Of a DNA stretch of 64,000 nucleotides, positions 25,223-33,805 are shown one piece after another; the stretch's first letter is position 1, and each line of letters opens with the position of its first letter. This stretch comes from Lithacetigena sp037446255 [NCBI: Coprothermobacterota bacterium] (GTDB lineage: Bacteria > Coprothermobacterota > HKB111). Position numbers and translations under genes: made by a program. Location of the stretch: assembly GCA_037446255.1 (NCBI GenBank), contig JBBIIY010000004.1, positions 1-64,000 on the forward strand. The letters are read 5' to 3'. Below the pieces are notes generated by a model. The model had not been told where the DNA came from. It searched no databases and saw only the letters and a list, made by a program, of their open reading frames with translations.

Positions 25223-26416
25223 TTAAATGATTCCTAATTTTTTACCTGCAATTTCCATTTTAGTCAAAGCAAAATCAAGATCTTCGCGTGAATGGATGGC
25301 AGATACAATTGTTCTCACGCGAGCTTTTTCGCGGGGTACCGTGGGGAAGGTTATACTTTGGGCGAAAACTCCTTCCTGAAATAGGTTATGACTGAATTCA
25401 CGGGCTACACTCGCTTCTCCGGTAATTATAGGGGTTATGGGAGTTTGGGAAATACCGGTGTTAAATCCCATTTTTGCAAGTTTTTCTTTATAGTAAGCAG
25501 TATTTTCCCAGAGTGTATTTATCAGGTGCTCGCCTTCAGGCGACTGTAATATTTTCACCGCGATAATGGTGGCAGCCACTACCCCAGGTGGGTGGGAGGT
25601 AGAAAACAATAATGGCCTTCCTCTCTGTATCAGGTATTTTACCAATGAGCTACTGCTGGCTACATAACCACCCATAGTTCCCAGCGCTTTGGATAATGTT
25701 CCTACCTGTATGTCCACACTGCCATGAAGGTTGAAGTGGTCAACAGAACCCCGGCCATTTCTGCCCAGGACTCCCGATGAATGGGCATCATCAACCATCA
25801 AGATGGCTTCAAACCTATCTGCAAGCTTAACAATCTCCGGTAGAGGGGCAATATCTCCATCCATACTGAAAACCCCATCGGTAACCAGTAAAACTTTTCC
25901 AGATTTGAGGCTTCTCGCTTCTATTAATTTTTCCTCCAGACTATTCATATCAGTATGCTGATAAACTAAGATTTTTGCCCGGGAAAGCCTGGCGCCGTCT
26001 ATAATAGAAGCATGATTAAGAGAGTCTGAAACGATGATATCATTTTCTGTTAACAATGCTTGAATAACACCCAGGTTGGTAGCGTATCCAGATTGAAATA
26101 CCATAGTTGATTCAACCTGTTTGAAATGGGCTAATTCGTTTTCCAGTTCCATATGCAGTTGCATAGTACCAGCAATGGTTCTTACAGCTCCTGAACCAAC
26201 TCCCCATTTTTCTGTAGCTTCCATGGCTGATTTAATCATAAGCGGGTGAGTATTAAAACCGAGGTAATTGTTTGAGGATAGATTCAAAAGCCGCCTGTTG
26301 TCAATATTTACCCAGGGACCCTGGGGAGAAGACATTACTTTGAGATCAGTTATTAGGTTTTCTTCTTGCAACTGCCTCAAGTTATTCAAAAGGAGTATTT
26401 CCAGGAATTTTTTCAT
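25223..26416 (-). CDS. kbl: Glycine C-acetyltransferase (2-amino-3-ketobutyrate CoA ligase)
   Basis: This PLP enzyme splits 2-amino-3-oxobutyrate with CoA into glycine and acetyl-CoA. The 397-residue protein has NLSSNNYLGFNTHP near 45-58, GSGAVRTIAGTM near 73-84, VDDAHSSGVLG near 205-215, and the PLP lysine in GTLSKALGTMGGYV near 238-251. The gene follows tdh by 61 bases, giving the two-step threonine breakdown route. Other members of this alpha-oxoamine synthase family use different oxo acids, so a second substrate is possible. AGGAGG-like TTTAATA spacing precedes the ATG. Confidence 0.92.
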   Translation of the reverse strand: MKKFLEILLLNNLRQLQEENLITDLKVMSSPQGPWVNIDNRRLLNLSSNNYLGFNTHPLMIKSAMEATEKWGVGSGAVRTIAGTMQLHMELENELAHFKQVESTMVFQSGYATNLGVIQALLTENDIIVSDSLNHASIIDGARLSRAKILVYQHTDMNSLEEKLIEARSLKSGKVLLVTDGVFSMDGDIAPLPEIVKLADRFEAILMVDDAHSSGVLGRNGRGSVDHFNLHGSVDIQVGTLSKALGTMGGYVASSSSLVKYLIQRGRPLLFSTSHPPGVVAATIIAVKILQSPEGEHLINTLWENTAYYKEKLAKMGFNTGISQTPITPIITGEASVAREFSHNLFQEGVFAQSITFPTVPREKARVRTIVSAIHSREDLDFALTKMEIAGKKLGII

Positions 26417-26477
26417 ATTATTAAACCTCCATCAGTTTGTTATAAAAAATATTTTTGGTACCCCAATTCATTACCGG

Positions 26478-27512
26478 TTAAAGTTCAGGATTCAGGATTA
26501 TCTTACCCGATTTTCCCTGAGCCATAACTTCCATAGCTTTATCAATTTCCGACAAAGGGAATCTATGGGTAATAATTGGAGATAAATCTAATTTTTTATT
26601 TTCTATGAGGTTTAAAACTTCATACCAGGTGGCAAACATTTGACGACCGATAACCCCGTGCAAGGTTATGCCTTTGAATATTATATCGTCAGCAATATTG
26701 AGGGGAATATCGGAAGTTGGTAAACCAAAAAAGACCATATGTCCACCTGGTTTAAGGGATTTTAGCGCATCGTTTATACCCAGGGGATGTCCTGACATAT
26801 CAAAAGATACATCCGCACCTTCTCCCCTCGTAGCTTCTTTTACAGCGTCCAAAAGGTTTAATTCATCGGGTTTTATTACTAAATCCGCTCCCAATTTCTT
26901 AGCCAATTCAATACGGTAGTCGTTAATTTCCGAAACTATCACTCGCGCAGCTCCATAACATTTCAAAACCAAAAGAAGTAAAAGACCCAGGGGGCCACTA
27001 CCTACAATCAATACATTCTTTCCAGAAACCGGGGTTATGGTAGCTGCCTGGACCGCATTTCCCAGAGGTTCTTCCAGGGGTAGGAATTCATCAGGTACTG
27101 AAGGTGAATTAACTATCAAATTAGTTTCTGGAATGGTTACGAATTCAGCAAAAGAGCCATTACGGTCTATTCCCAGAATTTTAGTTGAATTGCACAGATG
27201 AGGTTTTCCCTGGCGACAGAGAGTGCAGGACCAGTCAACAATGTGGGTTTCCACGGCTACCCTATCCCCGATTTTAACCCGGCTTACGTCGCTTCCTATT
27301 TCAACCACCGTACCCCCCATTTCGTGACCGGTAATCAAGGGAGGTTTTATCCTGCTTAGAGCCCAGACATCGGACTTATATATGTGTAAGTCAGTGCCAC
27401 AAATAGAGGAGTACTTAACTTTTACCAGGGCTTCATTTTTGGAGGGAGCAGGTTTTTCTACTTCCACCAAACAAACTCCCTGTTCAAAACTGCTTTTAAT
27501 AATTGCTTTCAT
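26478..27512 (-). CDS. tdh: L-threonine 3-dehydrogenase
   Basis: This zinc- and NAD-dependent medium-chain dehydrogenase (344 residues) makes 2-amino-3-oxobutyrate from threonine. Catalytic zinc ligands lie in CGTDLHIY (near 38-45) and GHEMGG (near 63-68). The structural zinc lobe reads DWSCTLCRQGKPHLC, with Asp where the first of four cysteines usually stands. The Rossmann motif is VGSGPLGLLL near 170-179. It lies 16 bases after the diaminopentanoate dehydrogenase-like gene and before kbl. Other polyol or amino-alcohol dehydrogenase activity cannot be excluded. Confidence 0.87.
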   Translation of the reverse strand: MKAIIKSSFEQGVCLVEVEKPAPSKNEALVKVKYSSICGTDLHIYKSDVWALSRIKPPLITGHEMGGTVVEIGSDVSRVKIGDRVAVETHIVDWSCTLCRQGKPHLCNSTKILGIDRNGSFAEFVTIPETNLIVNSPSVPDEFLPLEEPLGNAVQAATITPVSGKNVLIVGSGPLGLLLLLVLKCYGAARVIVSEINDYRIELAKKLGADLVIKPDELNLLDAVKEATRGEGADVSFDMSGHPLGINDALKSLKPGGHMVFFGLPTSDIPLNIADDIIFKGITLHGVIGRQMFATWYEVLNLIENKKLDLSPIITHRFPLSEIDKAMEVMAQGKSGKIILNPEL

Positions 27513-27528
27513 AGTTTACCTCTGGGGC

Positions 27529-28530
27529 TTAGAAACTCCCAATATTATGGCTGAGGGTAATATCTTTCATGGTGATTAAACCCCTGGGAGCATTCAGTAC
27601 TTTGGGAATACAGTTGACAGCGATGGAGGTAGTAGCAATGTCGCCGGGTGTTCCGCCGGGGATAATCACTTTAAGGGAAGGTTCGCCGGTGATTTCAATC
27701 AGGTCGTGTGGGTCAACAGCATCAAGAAAAGCGTTAAATTCAAGCTTTATAAGCTCTTTCCCTTCCTCATCCAGGGCGGTACCTACCTGGTATAAACCCC
27801 TCACTTTACCAGCTTCCACTTCAACATGGTCGGTTTTAATGAACACGTCAGTAGTTACCGGGTCAATAGTTTCTGTGTATCGGGCTATTTTCATACCTAA
27901 AGAGGTGGCTACAAAATATACGGATTCTTCTAAACCAACATGTCCGAGAGTACCCTCATCAACCCTTCTTCTAAATTCTTCTGTAGTTAAACCTGAGCCA
28001 ATCTTAACTTGAAAGGGGCCTCTCCTTTTAGTTGCGTCCATCAACCTTAAAATCCTGATTTTATAAACCTTTTTTAATACTGAAGTAAGAAAGAGCGGAA
28101 GAGAATCCATAAGAAAACCGGGATTAACCCCTGTTCCCAGGACGCTTACTTGGTTTTCCACGGCTAAATTATTGAGTTTTTCAACCATTTCCTTATTTTT
28201 AATAAAAGGAAAAGATAACTCTTCAGTGGTGGAAACAATATGAAGTTTTAGTTTAATTATTTCTTCCAATTGGGAATAAATCTGGGGAATGTATGATTGA
28301 GTAGTATGAACAACCACCTGTACTTCATTCAGGGGAAGTTCTGATAAGCTACCTTTAACCGGCACGCCAAGAGGGCCTACACCAATAACATCACCAAGGT
28401 CTTTACCAATATATTGGGGATTGGTGTCCACTCCGCCAACCAGAACCAGCTCTTTTTTCTCACAAATTGTTCGGGCTATACCCTTTCCTATTGGACCGAG
28501 ACCGAATTGTATTACACCTATGGGTTGCAT
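27529..28530 (-). CDS. 2,4-diaminopentanoate dehydrogenase-like protein
   Basis: This 333-residue protein has an N-terminal Rossmann fold (VIQFGLGPIGKGIARTI, 6-22) and a dihydrodipicolinate-reductase-like C-terminal domain. VLGTGVNPGFLMDSLPLF, EEFRRRVDEGTLGHVGLEESV and NAPRGLITMKDI closely resemble the clostridial ornithine-pathway dehydrogenase (Ord), which oxidises 2,4-diaminopentanoate to 2-amino-4-oxopentanoate. It heads an apparent operon with tdh and kbl and has a good AGGAGG site. No aminomutase or OrtAB thiolase is in the window, so the true substrate is uncertain. Confidence 0.72.
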   Translation of the reverse strand: MQPIGVIQFGLGPIGKGIARTICEKKELVLVGGVDTNPQYIGKDLGDVIGVGPLGVPVKGSLSELPLNEVQVVVHTTQSYIPQIYSQLEEIIKLKLHIVSTTEELSFPFIKNKEMVEKLNNLAVENQVSVLGTGVNPGFLMDSLPLFLTSVLKKVYKIRILRLMDATKRRGPFQVKIGSGLTTEEFRRRVDEGTLGHVGLEESVYFVATSLGMKIARYTETIDPVTTDVFIKTDHVEVEAGKVRGLYQVGTALDEEGKELIKLEFNAFLDAVDPHDLIEITGEPSLKVIIPGGTPGDIATTSIAVNCIPKVLNAPRGLITMKDITLSHNIGSF

Positions 28531-28655: not shown

Positions 28656-28730
28656 GCCGGTGTGGCTCAATGGTAGAGCAGCTGAATCGTAATCAGCAGG
28701 TTGGGGGTTCAAGTCCCTTCACCGGCTCCA
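28656..28730 (+). tRNA. tRNA-Thr(CGT)
   Basis: 75 bases with acceptor GCCGGTG/CACCGGC, discriminator T and encoded CCA. The anticodon stem GCTGA/TCAGC closes loop ATCGTAA, giving CGT. Confidence 0.93.
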
Positions 28731-28910: not shown

Positions 28911-29810
28911 TTGAAAAAGATTGTTAGTGTTAGCCTGGGTTCTTCTAAAAGAAACCATACCGTGGAGTTGGATATTTTAGGTGAAAAAGTACATATTTCT
29001 CGTATAGGAACGGATGGTGACCTGACTAAAATGATGCAGCTGATAAAACAACTTGATGGAGAAGTTGATTCCATTGGACTTGGAGGTACAGATTTATACC
29101 TTCAGGCTGGCAGAAAAAAATATATCATTCAAGAGTCATTAAAATTTAAAAAGGCCATCAAGAAATCGTTTGTTACAGATGGCTCTCTCATTAAGGCTGT
29201 CTGGGAGAAGAAGGTGGTAATCAATTTGGTTGAGGAAGGAATTATTTCTGCAAACTCCCGAGTTTTAGTTACCACCGCCCTTGATAGATACGGAATGGCG
29301 GAAGCCTTTTATAATATGGGGTGTATGGTGGTTTTTGGGGATTTCCTATTTGCTCTTAACTTACCCTTTCCCCTGAGGACACTGAAAGCCGTCAATATCG
29401 CTGCTGCTATTTTATTGCCCATCTTAACCCGTCTTCCCATCAGGATGCTATATCCGGTCGGGAAAAAACAGGAGGAAATAAAACCCCGGTATGAACATTT
29501 TTTCCACTGGGCGCAGGTCATTTCTGGCGATTTTCACCAGATAAGAAGGTATGCTCCTTTAAAGCTGGAAAATAAAATTATTCTTACCAATACGGTTACC
29601 CCTGAAGATGTGGAAATGCTTAGAAACCGCGGTGTTTCCCTGTTAATTACTACCACTCCGGTCTGGGAAGGCAGGTCTTTTGGTACTAACATATTGGAAG
29701 GTTTATTGGTTTCTTTTTTAGGGAAACCTCAGGAAAAAATCATCGAAAAAGAAGTAGAAGAATTTTTAATAAAAATATCTCTCAAGCCACGAATTGAAAA
29801 ACTGAATTAA
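28911..29810 (+). CDS. Quinate 5-dehydrogenase-like protein of uncertain function
   Basis: This 299-residue protein begins KKIVSVSLGSSKRNHTVE and continues with RIGTDGDLTKMMQLI and DSIGLGGTDLYLQAG. It resembles proteins annotated in anaerobic Firmicutes as quinate 5-dehydrogenase, but I see no biochemical basis for that name. RVLVTTALDRYGMAEAFYNMG (about 121-141) could be a nucleotide-binding segment. A hydrophobic stretch near 158-180 (AAAILLPILTRLPI) suggests membrane contact. TTG at 28911 follows AAGAGG by six bases; an in-frame TTG at 28905 is too close to that site. The next gene starts 11 bases downstream. Confidence 0.6.
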   Translation: MKKIVSVSLGSSKRNHTVELDILGEKVHISRIGTDGDLTKMMQLIKQLDGEVDSIGLGGTDLYLQAGRKKYIIQESLKFKKAIKKSFVTDGSLIKAVWEKKVVINLVEEGIISANSRVLVTTALDRYGMAEAFYNMGCMVVFGDFLFALNLPFPLRTLKAVNIAAAILLPILTRLPIRMLYPVGKKQEEIKPRYEHFFHWAQVISGDFHQIRRYAPLKLENKIILTNTVTPEDVEMLRNRGVSLLITTTPVWEGRSFGTNILEGLLVSFLGKPQEKIIEKEVEEFLIKISLKPRIEKLN

Positions 29811-29821
29811 AAGGATAATTG

Positions 29822-30901
29822 ATGGAAAAATTTGCTTTTATTTTACATCCGATAAACTACCAGGATCTAACCAGGAAGTATAGTTGGGCTAATTATCTTC
29901 CCCCTTCTCTGGTGCTGGAGTATGTTAAGAGAAAAAAGCCTTTTATCGCTTCTCATATTACTGGAATTAAATCTATTCATACTGGAGAGGAAATTGAAGG
30001 TTTTTTCATTGCCTGCCCCCTGACAACCCAACAAATGATAGATTTACCTTTACCTTTTGTCTATGACAAAATAATTGAGTCAGGGAAATTAGCTCAAGAA
30101 GCTGGAGCAAAAATTGTTGGTCTGGGCGCGTTCACCTCGGTAGTAGGAGATGGTGGTCTTACCATAAAATTAAACCTGGACATTGATGTAACTACCGGAA
30201 ATAGTTATACAGTAGCCTCAGCTATAGAGGGAACTTATGAAGCCTTAAAATTACTGGATGTGGAGGTAAATGAAGCCACCTTGGCAGTAGTAGGAGCTAC
30301 CGGGTCAATAGGAAAAGCTGTAGCCTTGCTGATGGCGCCATCTTTCAAAAAAACCTACCTGGTTGGCAGAAATGCTGATAAAACTAACTCATTAATTAAT
30401 TACTTTCAGGACAAAAATTTAGAAATTAATTGCACAACCTCCATTATAGAAGGAGTAAAAGAAGCTGATGCCATAATTACAGTTTCCAGTGCGGTAGAAG
30501 AGGTTATTCACCCGGAAATGCTAAAACCAGGGTCAGTGGTATGTGATGTTGCCAGACCCAGAGATGTTTCACCCAAAGTAGCTAAAGTTAGAAATGATGT
30601 GTTGGTGATTGAAGGAGGAGTTATTCAGGTTCCAGGAAATCCCTCATTTAACTTCAATTTTGGTTTCCCTCCAGGGCTGGCTTACGCTTGTATGTCGGAA
30701 ACTATGATATTAACTCTGGAAAAGAGGTATGACTCCTTTTCTTTAGGAAAGGACCTGGATATAGAGAAAGTTAAAGAAATAAATGAATTAGCCCAAAAAC
30801 ATGGATTTAAACTTGCTGGATTCAGATGTTTTGAAAAAGTATTGACCTCCAGTGATATTTATAAAATAAAAGAAAATGCCCTAAAGAACAGAAGGAGGTA
30901 G
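29822..30901 (+). CDS. Long-chain acyl-ACP reductase (AAR)-like oxidoreductase
   Basis: The 359-residue protein resembles cyanobacterial fatty acyl-ACP reductase along its length. GLGAFTSVVGDGG and VTTGNSYTVASA match the AAR GGFSS and TTGNTHTA segments. VVGATGSIGKAVALLM (about 157-172) matches its NADPH site CGATGDIGSAV. LAYACMSETMILTLE places C290 where AAR has its catalytic Cys. The tail with SLGKDLDIEKVKEI also aligns. It might reduce acyl thioesters to aldehydes. Databases often call such proteins shikimate dehydrogenase-like. The ATG at 29822 follows AAAGGATAATTG. It lies just upstream of greA. Confidence 0.65.
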   Translation: MEKFAFILHPINYQDLTRKYSWANYLPPSLVLEYVKRKKPFIASHITGIKSIHTGEEIEGFFIACPLTTQQMIDLPLPFVYDKIIESGKLAQEAGAKIVGLGAFTSVVGDGGLTIKLNLDIDVTTGNSYTVASAIEGTYEALKLLDVEVNEATLAVVGATGSIGKAVALLMAPSFKKTYLVGRNADKTNSLINYFQDKNLEINCTTSIIEGVKEADAIITVSSAVEEVIHPEMLKPGSVVCDVARPRDVSPKVAKVRNDVLVIEGGVIQVPGNPSFNFNFGFPPGLAYACMSETMILTLEKRYDSFSLGKDLDIEKVKEINELAQKHGFKLAGFRCFEKVLTSSDIYKIKENALKNRRR

Positions 30902-32865: not shown

Positions 32866-32938
32866 GCGCCCGTAGCTTAATGGATAGAGCGACGGCCTCC
32901 GGAGCCGTAGGCTGGAGGTTCGAATCCTCTCGGGCGCA
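32866..32938 (+). tRNA. tRNA-Arg(CCG), CCA not encoded
   Basis: 73 bases with acceptor GCGCCCG/CGGGCGC and discriminator A. The anticodon stem ACGGC/GCCGT closes loop CTCCGGA, giving CCG. The next bases are CTA, not CCA, so the 3' end must be completed by the CCA-adding enzyme. All six other tRNAs in the window encode CCA. A TATAAT (32850-32855) overlapping the lysS stop could be its -10 box. Confidence 0.92.
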
Positions 32939-32962
32939 CTAAATAGAATGGAGGTAAGAGAG

Positions 32963-33805
32963 ATGAAAATTGGATTAGTTACAGATAGTACCGGTTATGT
33001 CAGTTTGGAGGATATAGAAAAACACAATATTGAGGTTGTTCCTCTTAAAGTAATTTATCCAGATGGTCAGGTATTTGATGAGTCTGCGCTCAATTGGAAG
33101 GAATATTTTTCTTCCCTAAAAACTGCTAAAAAATTACCTACCACCTCACAACCTTCTGCTGGTGAGTTTGAACAGGTTTATAAAGCAGTGTTTAATAAAG
33201 GCTACGATGAAATTCTTTCTGTACATATCTCTTCGGGTATAAGCGGGACAGTTCAATCTGCAATGATGGCCAGGGATACTTTTCAAGATAAAAAGATAGA
33301 GGTATATGACTCATTCTACACTGCGATGGGTCTTGACTTTCAAGTTGTAGAAGCAGCCAACCTTATTAAAGAGAACGCTACTATACCTGACATCCTGGCT
33401 TGCCTTAATTATATGAGAGATAACACTAAACTACTGTTTATGGTGGATACCCTGGAATACCTGCAAAAAGGCGGTAGAATAGGTGGAGCTCAAGCTTTGC
33501 TCGGTTCAATACTTCAGCTAAAACCCATTCTGACCATATTCAAGAAAGTTGAAACTTATGATAAGGTGCGTTCTCGCCAGAAAGCTTTAGACCGCCTGGT
33601 AGAAGAGATGGAAAAGGAAGTTCAAAAATCTAAAGGCAGGTTCAAATTAGGAATATTGCATTTGGAAGCTGCGGAAACAGCTAAATACCTGGAAGAAAAA
33701 CTTAAGGTATTGTCACCTGAAATTTCGATGGGTGTTATTGGTCCATGTATTGGAACCCATATAGGTCCTGGTGCTGTCGGAGTCTGTATAACCCACCTGC
33801 CATAG
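32963..33805 (+). CDS. DegV-family fatty-acid-binding protein
   Basis: DegV proteins bind fatty acids for the FakA/FakB kinase. The 280-residue protein begins MKIGLVTDSTGYVS and has LPTTSQPSAGEFEQVY near 63-78, VHISSGISGTVQSA near 91-104, DTLEYLQKGGRIGGAQAL near 165-182, and GPCIGTHIGPGAVG near the end. These are the DegV signature segments. The ATG at 32963 has GGAGGTAAGAG upstream; the earlier in-frame ATG at 32948 does not. It is followed by rpiB after three bases. Confidence 0.93.
   Translation: MKIGLVTDSTGYVSLEDIEKHNIEVVPLKVIYPDGQVFDESALNWKEYFSSLKTAKKLPTTSQPSAGEFEQVYKAVFNKGYDEILSVHISSGISGTVQSAMMARDTFQDKKIEVYDSFYTAMGLDFQVVEAANLIKENATIPDILACLNYMRDNTKLLFMVDTLEYLQKGGRIGGAQALLGSILQLKPILTIFKKVETYDKVRSRQKALDRLVEEMEKEVQKSKGRFKLGILHLEAAETAKYLEEKLKVLSPEISMGVIGPCIGTHIGPGAVGVCITHLP

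What the first reader, a model, noticed from the sequence alone, without database searches (positions are those of the whole stretch)
28911..30901. Two-gene unit: quinate-dehydrogenase-like protein plus acyl-ACP-reductase-like protein
The second protein aligns by eye with cyanobacterial fatty acyl-ACP reductase over its whole length, including the GATGxIG cofactor site and a Cys (C290) in the ACxxExxL context of the AAR catalytic residue. AAR is known as a cyanobacterial alkane-pathway enzyme, and no aldehyde-deformylating oxygenase would work in an anaerobe. The first protein, with VSLGSSxRxH and RIGTDGD motifs, has no secure function and is 11 bases upstream. Together they may be an undescribed aldehyde or lipid-related pathway placed before greA-lysS.
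Basis: partly seen in the sequence, partly recalled or inferred. Interest (0 to 1): 0.68.

Follow-up and report, generated by a model that had tools for sequence, protein, structure and literature searches.

The report
Conserved thioester reductase with its partner
Two neighbouring genes are found together in nearly every genome examined of two bacterial phyla: one should turn a carrier-bound acid into an aldehyde, probably on the way to an amine, and the other is a conserved partner protein whose job is unknown.

Summary
P1 (28911-29810) and P2 (29822-30901) are real, adjacent genes. P2 belongs to the acyl-ACP-reductase (AAR) fold family: Z 34.3 to AAR, at most 15.2 outside AAR/TAD rows, GATGxIG kept, C290 in 80 of 80 aligned rows. 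P1 is not a quinate dehydrogenase by Pfam, NCBIfam or PDB sequence. Its confident model is most like AAR but shows no sequence kinship to P2; it lacks the Gly-rich motif and has an invariant Asn where the catalytic Cys should be (position inferred). P1 accompanies P2 in 78 of 80 genomes; both occur in 9 of 9 genomes of the nearest relatives' phylum and 79-80 of 81 Armatimonadota.
In 16 of 119 Bacillota the AAR domain is fused behind a class-III aminotransferase; 1 of the 16 keeps canonical P2. Among the rest, 59 of 64 with canonical P2 carry a stand-alone relative of that aminotransferase, against 4 of 39 without: strong, but unproven once kinship is considered.
Best reading: an unfused PigE/TamH-type pathway (thioester to aldehyde to amine) with P1 as non-reducing partner. 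The alkane route is unlikely (no ADO in 32 of 32). Substrate, product and P1's role are unproven.

The parts
28911..29810 (+). P1, 299 aa, partner protein of unknown function with an AAR-like two-domain Rossmann fold
   Evidence: ORF; model pLDDT 95.3; best VIA-align rows are AAR/TAD, Z up to 12.5; no Pfam match, no NCBIfam match over cut-off, no PDB sequence relative
29340..29342 (+). codon of invariant D144 of P1, at the end of the second Rossmann strand
   Evidence: 116 of 116 rows; strand 139-142 in the model
29688..29690 (+). codon of invariant N260 of P1, second residue of the helix that corresponds to the catalytic-Cys helix of P2 (inferred from the order of elements)
   Evidence: 116 of 116 rows; helices 259-270 in P1 and 289-299 in P2
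29822..30901 (+). P2, 359 aa, AAR-family thioester reductase
30293..30313 (+). GATGSIG, dinucleotide-binding motif GxxGxxG of P2
   Evidence: sequence; G158, G161, G164 invariant in 80 rows
30689..30691 (+). codon of C290 of P2, equivalent of AAR Cys294 and PigE Cys296
   Evidence: alignment; 80 of 80 rows; 103 of 111 in the wider set

Best explanation
P2 is a thioester reductase of the AAR family. It takes an acyl chain from a carrier protein (or CoA) onto C290 and reduces it with NAD(P)H to an aldehyde (inferred from family and conserved residues). A separate class-III aminotransferase (P3, not in the window; present in the two closest relatives) then converts the aldehyde to a primary amine (inferred from fusions, replacement and co-occurrence). 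P2 plus P3 is thus the unfused counterpart of PigE and TamH. P1 has an AAR-like fold but no Gly-rich motif, with Asn where the Cys should be; it most likely serves as a non-reducing partner that binds the carrier, the acyl chain or the reductase (least certain step). The substrate is probably a hydrophobic acyl chain.
For: P2: Z 34.3 to AAR, best row outside AAR/TAD 15.2; best NCBIfam PigE 207 bits, then AAR 101 bits, both below cut-off; C290 and GxxGxxG invariant. P1: in 78 of 80 P2 genomes, 65 of 65 canonical-P2 Bacillota, 9 of 9 in the phylum of the nearest relative, 8 of 9 adjacent, 80 of 81 Armatimonadota. Aminotransferase: 16 of 119 Bacillota carry aminotransferase-AAR fusions, 15 of them with P1, 1 with canonical P2. 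A stand-alone relative is in 59 of 64 canonical-P2 genomes against 4 of 39 others, 0 of 11 with P1 alone; in 9 of 9 Armatimonadota and 7 of 9 of the relatives' phylum tested. One Bacillota genome has it 40 bases before P2 (L251). Its best NCBIfam in L232 is the aminotransferase half of PigE, 515 bits. In fusion genomes the old P2 next to P1 can lose the Cys (L134, L135). Of 16 plasmid records with a P2 relative, 13 have it in a gene annotated class-III aminotransferase. Fusions of these architectures: TamH turns ACP-bound C12 acid into amine (PMC9594044); PigE is reported to reduce and transaminate a thioester (PMC8341465); Bacillota fusions transaminate aliphatic aldehydes (PMC10829540). Passages read of all three.
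Against: P1 shows no sequence kinship with P2 and its fold match is at superfamily level, only about 2 Z above glutamate dehydrogenases. P1 occurs without any AAR in 11 of 119 genomes, so it may have a separate function. The P2-P3 association rests on few independent events: 1 pair on supported branches, 5 on the best tree, not significant. In the relatives' phylum the P3 relative scores best as putrescine aminotransferase (457 bits, PigE 422, both below cut-off, L243), and 2 of 9 genomes lack it. No P3 gene lies in the window. Fusion genome G130 also keeps a stand-alone relative. G145 has a PigE-order fusion, not counted among the 16, beside canonical P2, so replacement is not strict: 2 of 17 fusion genomes keep canonical P2. 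PMC10829540 reports NRP/PKS-type clusters, likely prodiginine-like, in its three thermophile genomes, which would fit a special rather than a core role of the fusions. For PigE the purified enzyme gave no visible NAD(P)H consumption (PMC8341465). No activity has been measured for P2 or P1.
Confidence: 0.6

Rival explanations
1. P2 makes fatty aldehydes for hydrocarbons or alcohols, as cyanobacterial AAR does, and the aminotransferase link is incidental.
For: Fold and catalytic residues are those of AAR; the reduction step is the same.
Against: No ADO family member in 32 of 32 genomes, with Synechococcus elongatus ringing as control. The fusions and the complementary distribution point to transamination. 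An aldehyde reductase to alcohol was not searched for.
Confidence: 0.15
2. P1 is an independent enzyme or regulator that shares an operon with P2 but not a reaction.
For: 11 of 119 Bacillota have P1 and no AAR; 29 of 31 genomes whose P2 locus showed no P1 have it on another place; P1 conserves many polar residues (R31, D90, D125, R126, D144, D207, N260, each in at least 115 of 116 rows), as an active site would.
Against: All 65 canonical-P2 genomes and 15 of 16 fusion genomes have P1; direct adjacency in 39 of 80 loci. P1-alone genomes may be remnants of a lost pathway: none of the 11 has P3.
Confidence: 0.3
3. P2 and P1 are shikimate/quinate or amino-acid dehydrogenases.
For: Pfam Shikimate_DH covers the Rossmann part of P2 (E 3.3e-13, 50.3 bits, cut-off 24.3).
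Against: The AAR family is matched over the full length and far better in structure; C290 is invariant; P1 has no Pfam match at E up to 1.
Confidence: 0.03
4. The substrate is an aminoacyl or polyketide thioester, not a fatty acyl chain, so this is an alkaloid-like or cofactor pathway.
For: PigE, TamH and KecF act in alkaloid pathways (PMC8341465, PMC9594044, PMC6498172); NRP/PKS-type clusters are reported in the three thermophiles with fusions (PMC10829540); GluTR is a distant relative.
Against: No polyketide or peptide synthetase was recognised, by eye, beside the genes in the loci read; neighbours look like housekeeping genes. Near-universal presence in Armatimonadota does not fit a secondary metabolite.
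Confidence: 0.25

Closest known systems
PigE (prodigiosin) and TamH (tambjamine) reductase-transaminase fusions
   Same: P2 scores best of all NCBIfam models against the reductase half of PigE (207 bits); the Bacillota P3 of L232 scores best against its aminotransferase half (515 bits); catalytic Cys and dinucleotide site conserved. Chemistry from passages read of PMC8341465 and PMC9594044.
   Different: Here the two activities are separate genes, in most genomes on different places; P1 accompanies the reductase; the genes sit beside housekeeping genes in whole phyla. Scores are below the PigE cut-off (850).
Cyanobacterial acyl-ACP reductase (AAR, TIGR04058)
   Same: Whole fold (Z 34.3, 326 residues), GxxGxxG, Cys294 equivalent
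   Different: 101 bits against a cut-off of 449.7; no ADO; accompanied by P1
Bacillota transaminase-AAR fusions of Thermaerobacter and Thermincola (PMC10829540)
   Same: Same two domains and order as the fusions found here in 16 of 119 Bacillota; transaminase activity on aliphatic aldehydes reported there (abstract, outline and passages read)
   Different: The passages read use single-domain relatives of each half for alignment, but do not treat them as a pathway and do not mention P1; the reductase was assigned there by structure
Family annotated 'quinate 5-dehydrogenase' in Deinococcus and Thermus (PMC9425974, Table 3: 33 genomes, 33 proteins, low variability, uncharacterized; passages read)
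   Different: Not tested that this family is P1: the link rests on the annotation name alone
Carmabin TAD (PDB 9e4s and relatives)
   Same: AAR fold with a Cys and NAD(H) in the entry titles; Z 33.6 to P2 and 12.4 to P1
   Different: Residues numbered 1928-2307, so part of a large protein of a natural-product pathway; known to me from the entry titles only

Membership tests
AAR family (fold and catalysis), P2 | AAR fold over the whole chain | tested here: met
   Z 34.3, 326 residues, rmsd 2.8
AAR family (fold and catalysis), P2 | Catalytic Cys (C294 of SeAAR) | tested here: met
   C290, 80 of 80 rows
AAR family (fold and catalysis), P2 | GxxGxxG dinucleotide motif | tested here: met
   GATGSIG, invariant Gly
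AAR family (fold and catalysis), P2 | Acyl-ACP/CoA reduction to aldehyde | not testable with these tools
   needs an assay
TIGR04058 long-chain acyl-ACP reductase, equivalog | score over 449.7 bits | tested here: not met
   101.1 bits; 0 of 9 genomes of the relatives' phylum over the cut-off
TIGR04058 long-chain acyl-ACP reductase, equivalog | partner ADO in the genome | tested here: not met
   0 of 32 genomes, control positive; the window's own genome is not held
PigE/TamH type reductase-transaminase | AAR-type reductase domain with Cys | tested here: met
PigE/TamH type reductase-transaminase | class-III aminotransferase fused in the same chain | tested here: not met
   P2 is 359 aa; no aminotransferase of this type in the window
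PigE/TamH type reductase-transaminase | related aminotransferase elsewhere in the genome | tested here: met
   in the closest relatives G001 (E 4.3e-110) and G002 (E 1.2e-107); not testable in the window's own genome
Shikimate/quinate dehydrogenase (P2) | substrate-binding domain plus NAD domain of the family | tested here: not met
   only the NAD-binding part matches Pfam Shikimate_DH; no N-terminal family domain reported
Quinate 5-dehydrogenase (P1) | any profile match | tested here: not met
   0 Pfam families; no NCBIfam dehydrogenase
AAR family (P1) | fold similarity above that of other dehydrogenases | tested here: inconclusive
   AAR/TAD fill the first nine rows, Z 10.9-12.5, glutamate dehydrogenases 10.3; no sequence kinship
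AAR family (P1) | catalytic Cys and GxxGxxG | tested here: not met
   P1 has N260 and TALDRYG at the corresponding places (correspondence inferred)

The most novel reading that the evidence does not exclude
P1, P2 and P3 form an ancient, near-core reductive-amination system of Armatimonadota, Lithacetigenota and many Bacillota. It makes an undescribed primary amine on a hydrophobic chain, with P1 as a catalytically dead AAR-fold subunit. PigE, TamH and the Bacillota fusions would be fused relatives of this system.
Probability: 0.35. Interest if true: 0.85.

Novelty: new variant of a known kind. Interest (0 to 1): 0.62.

Why it matters
If true, bacteria of several phyla carry a conserved pathway to aldehydes and amines that the family libraries do not name: P2 shows only as a Rossmann domain in Pfam, and P1 has no family at all in the libraries used here. 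It would place the PigE/TamH chemistry, known from pigments, in ordinary metabolism, and give P1 a testable function. Three proteins that look soluble are easy to test in vitro.

Tried and rejected
Alkane route: made unlikely by ADO absence. Shikimate/quinate dehydrogenase: rejected. Sequence homology of P1 with P2/AAR: tested with two depths of profiles, none found. An ungapped profile scan gave some collinear diagonals, no better than off-line ones, so I do not claim homology. Foldseek's own ranking for P1 put sugar-binding proteins first, at TM-scores of about 0.33-0.36; AAR 6jzy was fifth, TM 0.44/0.40. Single members of the P1 family give stray weak Pfam matches in 1-2 of 47 (best 0.0021). 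The aminotransferase family is not specific by itself: 3 of 22 genomes with neither P1 nor AAR also have it.

Thresholds and classes. Canonical P2 means E of 1e-130 or better, plus G118, whose gene is cut in two: 65 genomes. Nine genomes hold a weaker match, called degenerate; seven of them have lost the Cys in the copy read, G141's copy keeps it, and G061 has S. G153 has, besides its Cys-less copy, a divergent relative with Cys; counting it as P2 gives 59 of 65 against 4 of 38. The aminotransferase cut-off of 1e-92 was chosen, where best values fell at 1e-99 or better, or at 1e-90 or worse; one hit at 1.3e-95 is a second copy. Two of the 79 Armatimonadota P2 matches (G155, G168, E about 1e-72) are another AAR subtype with Cys. 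Fisher values (1e-17, 8.7e-8) ignore kinship; the kinship-aware pairs are too few. The 30 genomes were picked by me, not drawn at random. The P2 tree has long branches and an unresolved backbone; I use it only for two statements: 15 fusion AAR domains group with support 100, and the window row groups with L001 and L002. G114 was left out of the P1 tree (cut gene). L074 was left out of A2, and two cut P1 rows (L015, L028) out of A1. P1 on plasmids: no match. Literature searches for the unfused pair listed no paper that I recognised as describing it; only open-licence papers are held. Papers PMC9594044, PMC8341465, PMC9743570, PMC6498172, PMC9425974, PMC9751293: passages only; PMC10829540: abstract, outline and passages.

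Full report
WHAT IS THERE. P1 (28911-29810, TTG start) and P2 (29822-30901) are adjacent on the + strand, 11 bases apart, ahead of greA and lysS. The nearest loci are MAGs of Candidatus Psychracetigena and Lithacetigena: L001 and L002, 89 and 94% identical in P1 and 90% in P2. The isolates named in the titles (BS5B28, HKB111) are those of the phylum Lithacetigenota of serpentinite springs (PMC9751293, passages read). The window's own genome is not held.

P2. Pfam sees only a Rossmann part (Shikimate_DH and weaker ones). NCBIfam's best models are PigE (207 bits) and AAR (101 bits), both below cut-off. PDB sequences: PigE 1.6e-33, AAR 1.3e-21. The model (pLDDT 92.9) matches AAR at Z 34.3 and the carmabin TAD at 33.6; the next row is 15.2. 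C290, aligned with Cys294 of AAR and Cys296 of PigE, is invariant in 80 of 80 rows, as are the three Gly of GATGxIG. In AAR the acyl chain moves from ACP to this Cys and is then reduced by NADPH (PMC9743570, passages). That P2 does the same is inference from the family.

P1. No Pfam match at E up to 1, no NCBIfam match over cut-off, no PDB sequence relative. The model is very confident (pLDDT 95.3). VIA-align's first nine rows are AAR and TAD (Z 10.9-12.5 over 244-254 residues), then glutamate dehydrogenases at 10.3. Foldseek alone ranks AAR fifth, behind sugar-binding proteins. Profile comparison finds no kinship with P2. The order of strands and helices matches P2. On that basis the helix that carries C290 in P2 carries N260 in P1, invariant in 116 of 116 rows, and the GATGxIG loop is replaced by TALDRYG (DRFG in 86 of 116 rows); D144 at the end of the second Rossmann strand is also invariant. 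I infer a protein that cannot do the AAR reaction but binds something.

THE PAIR IS CONSERVED. A scan gave 190 relatives of P2, of which 80 were kept. P1 is on the fetched locus in 48 (2 of them cut, one of these confirmed). Of the 32 others, L025 was found positive and 29 of the remaining 31: 78 of 80 in all. The two misses are L052 (titled Betaproteobacteria) and L060. P1 lies directly before P2 in 39 of 80 loci, with gaps of -31 to 140. Phylum of the nearest relative (9 genomes held): both in 9 of 9, adjacent in 8, on separate contigs in 1. Armatimonadota (phylum of G004, a Chthonomonas by title): P2 in 79 and P1 in 80 of 81; two of the 79 are another AAR subtype. A sample of 119 genomes of the phylum of Desulfofundulus, here called Bacillota: canonical P2 in 65, all with P1; P1 in 95; P1 with no AAR at all in 11.

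THE AMINOTRANSFERASE. In 16 of the 119 Bacillota the AAR domain is the C-terminal part of an about 870-1050-residue ORF with an N-terminal class-III aminotransferase (Pfam run on one, L136). This is the TamH order. A further genome, G145, has a fusion in PigE order next to canonical P2 (L139). TamH turns ACP-bound acid into amine with NADH and L-Glu (PMC9594044), PigE is reported to reduce and transaminate a thioester (PMC8341465), and fusions of Thermaerobacter and Thermincola transaminate aliphatic aldehydes (PMC10829540). Fifteen of the 16 genomes have P1 and one also has canonical P2. In three of them the gene at P2's place has diverged: W for Cys in L134 and L135, a weak match in L187. 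In three others an unrecognisable ORF follows P1 (L141, L189, L190). A small helix-turn-helix protein, P0, matches in 45 loci and precedes P1, P2 or the fusion in those read; it is absent from the window and from the 10 loci of the relatives' phylum checked.

A stand-alone relative of the fused aminotransferase (P3) was then sought with profile A3. Outside fusion genomes it is present in 59 of 64 genomes with canonical P2 and in 4 of 39 without; in 0 of 11 with P1 alone, 1 of 6 with degenerate P2 and 3 of 22 with neither. In 30 genomes that I picked, 28 have it: 11 of 11 Bacillota and 9 of 9 Armatimonadota with P1 and P2, 7 of 9 of the relatives' phylum, and the fusion genome G130. In G108 it lies 40 bases before P2 (L251). 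There are two types: a long one in most Bacillota, of which L232 is closest to the PigE aminotransferase half (515 bits), and a short one, of which L243 (relatives' phylum) and L241 (Armatimonadota) are closest to putrescine aminotransferase (457 and 452 bits, below cut-off) with PigE next (422 and 425). Kinship weakens the statistics. On a P1 tree of 94 genomes (79 without fusion) P2 changes 5 times and P3 8 times, but only 1 independent pair lies on supported branches (5 on the best tree), so no test can reach 0.05. Independently, 13 of 16 plasmid records with a P2 relative have it in a gene annotated class-III aminotransferase; two records carry no annotation and one has no feature there.

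HINTS ON THE SUBSTRATE. In the relatives' phylum P3 is followed by a polyketide-cyclase/lipid-transport (SRPBCC) protein in the 7 loci read, and in 3 Bacillota loci (L257-L259) too (Pfam run on L243, L257, L258, the rest by eye). In Desulfofundulus P1 sits beside an SCP2 lipid-transfer domain protein (L115). A DegV/FakB-type protein follows lysS in the window and lies near three fusions. All of these fit a hydrophobic chain; none shows it. Against this, NRP/PKS-type clusters are reported in three thermophiles with fusions (PMC10829540).

JUDGEMENT. That P2 is an AAR-family thioester reductase is well supported (about 0.9). That its product goes to an aminotransferase is likely (about 0.7). That P1 is a non-reducing partner of the reductase is plausible (about 0.55), with P1-alone genomes as the main counter-evidence. 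Substrate and product are unknown. The kind of chemistry is known; the unfused, P1-accompanied, near-core form was not found in the papers searched. One published list names an uncharacterized, slowly evolving Deinococcus family annotated quinate 5-dehydrogenase (PMC9425974, passages); that it is P1 rests on the name only.

Noticed in passing
window 32948-33805: DegV-family protein (TIGR00762 over cut-off; FakB1 217 bits, below cut-off) after lysS; 85-87% identical in L001 and L002. DegV proteins also lie near aminotransferase-AAR fusions in L196, L198, L199.
   Followed up: partly
window 25223-28530, - strand: BioF/Kbl-type acyltransferase, L-threonine 3-dehydrogenase and a 2,4-diaminopentanoate-dehydrogenase-like gene (265.7 bits, cut-off 400), divergent from P1.
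   Followed up: partly
window 28656-28730 and 32866-32939: tRNA-Thr(CGT) just before P1 and tRNA-Arg(CCG) after lysS.
   Followed up: no
L176 3-2448: Tandem duplicate of P1 before P2 in one genome (G232) of the relatives' phylum.
   Followed up: no
L152-L157: Divergent second P1 copies in Bacillota, some next to an sfsA-like gene and other unrelated genes (names by eye).
   Followed up: no
L243-L249, L257-L259: Class-III aminotransferase followed by an SRPBCC lipid-binding-type protein; in the relatives' phylum often also an FAD-dependent oxidoreductase.
   Followed up: partly
L161-L164, L134, L135, L137, L166: P2 copies that have lost the catalytic Cys (S, A, W or Y instead); all but L164 next to or in the genome of an intact P1.
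   Followed up: partly
L318, L319 and L138 7274-8284: Another AAR subtype with Cys kept (PACxAET, VTNGGxxT) in two Armatimonadota and one Bacillota genome.
   Followed up: no
L024 125-655 and 44 other loci: P0, a helix-turn-helix protein with an unassigned C-terminal part, upstream of P1, P2 or the fusion in many Bacillota; no Pfam match over cut-off.
   Followed up: partly
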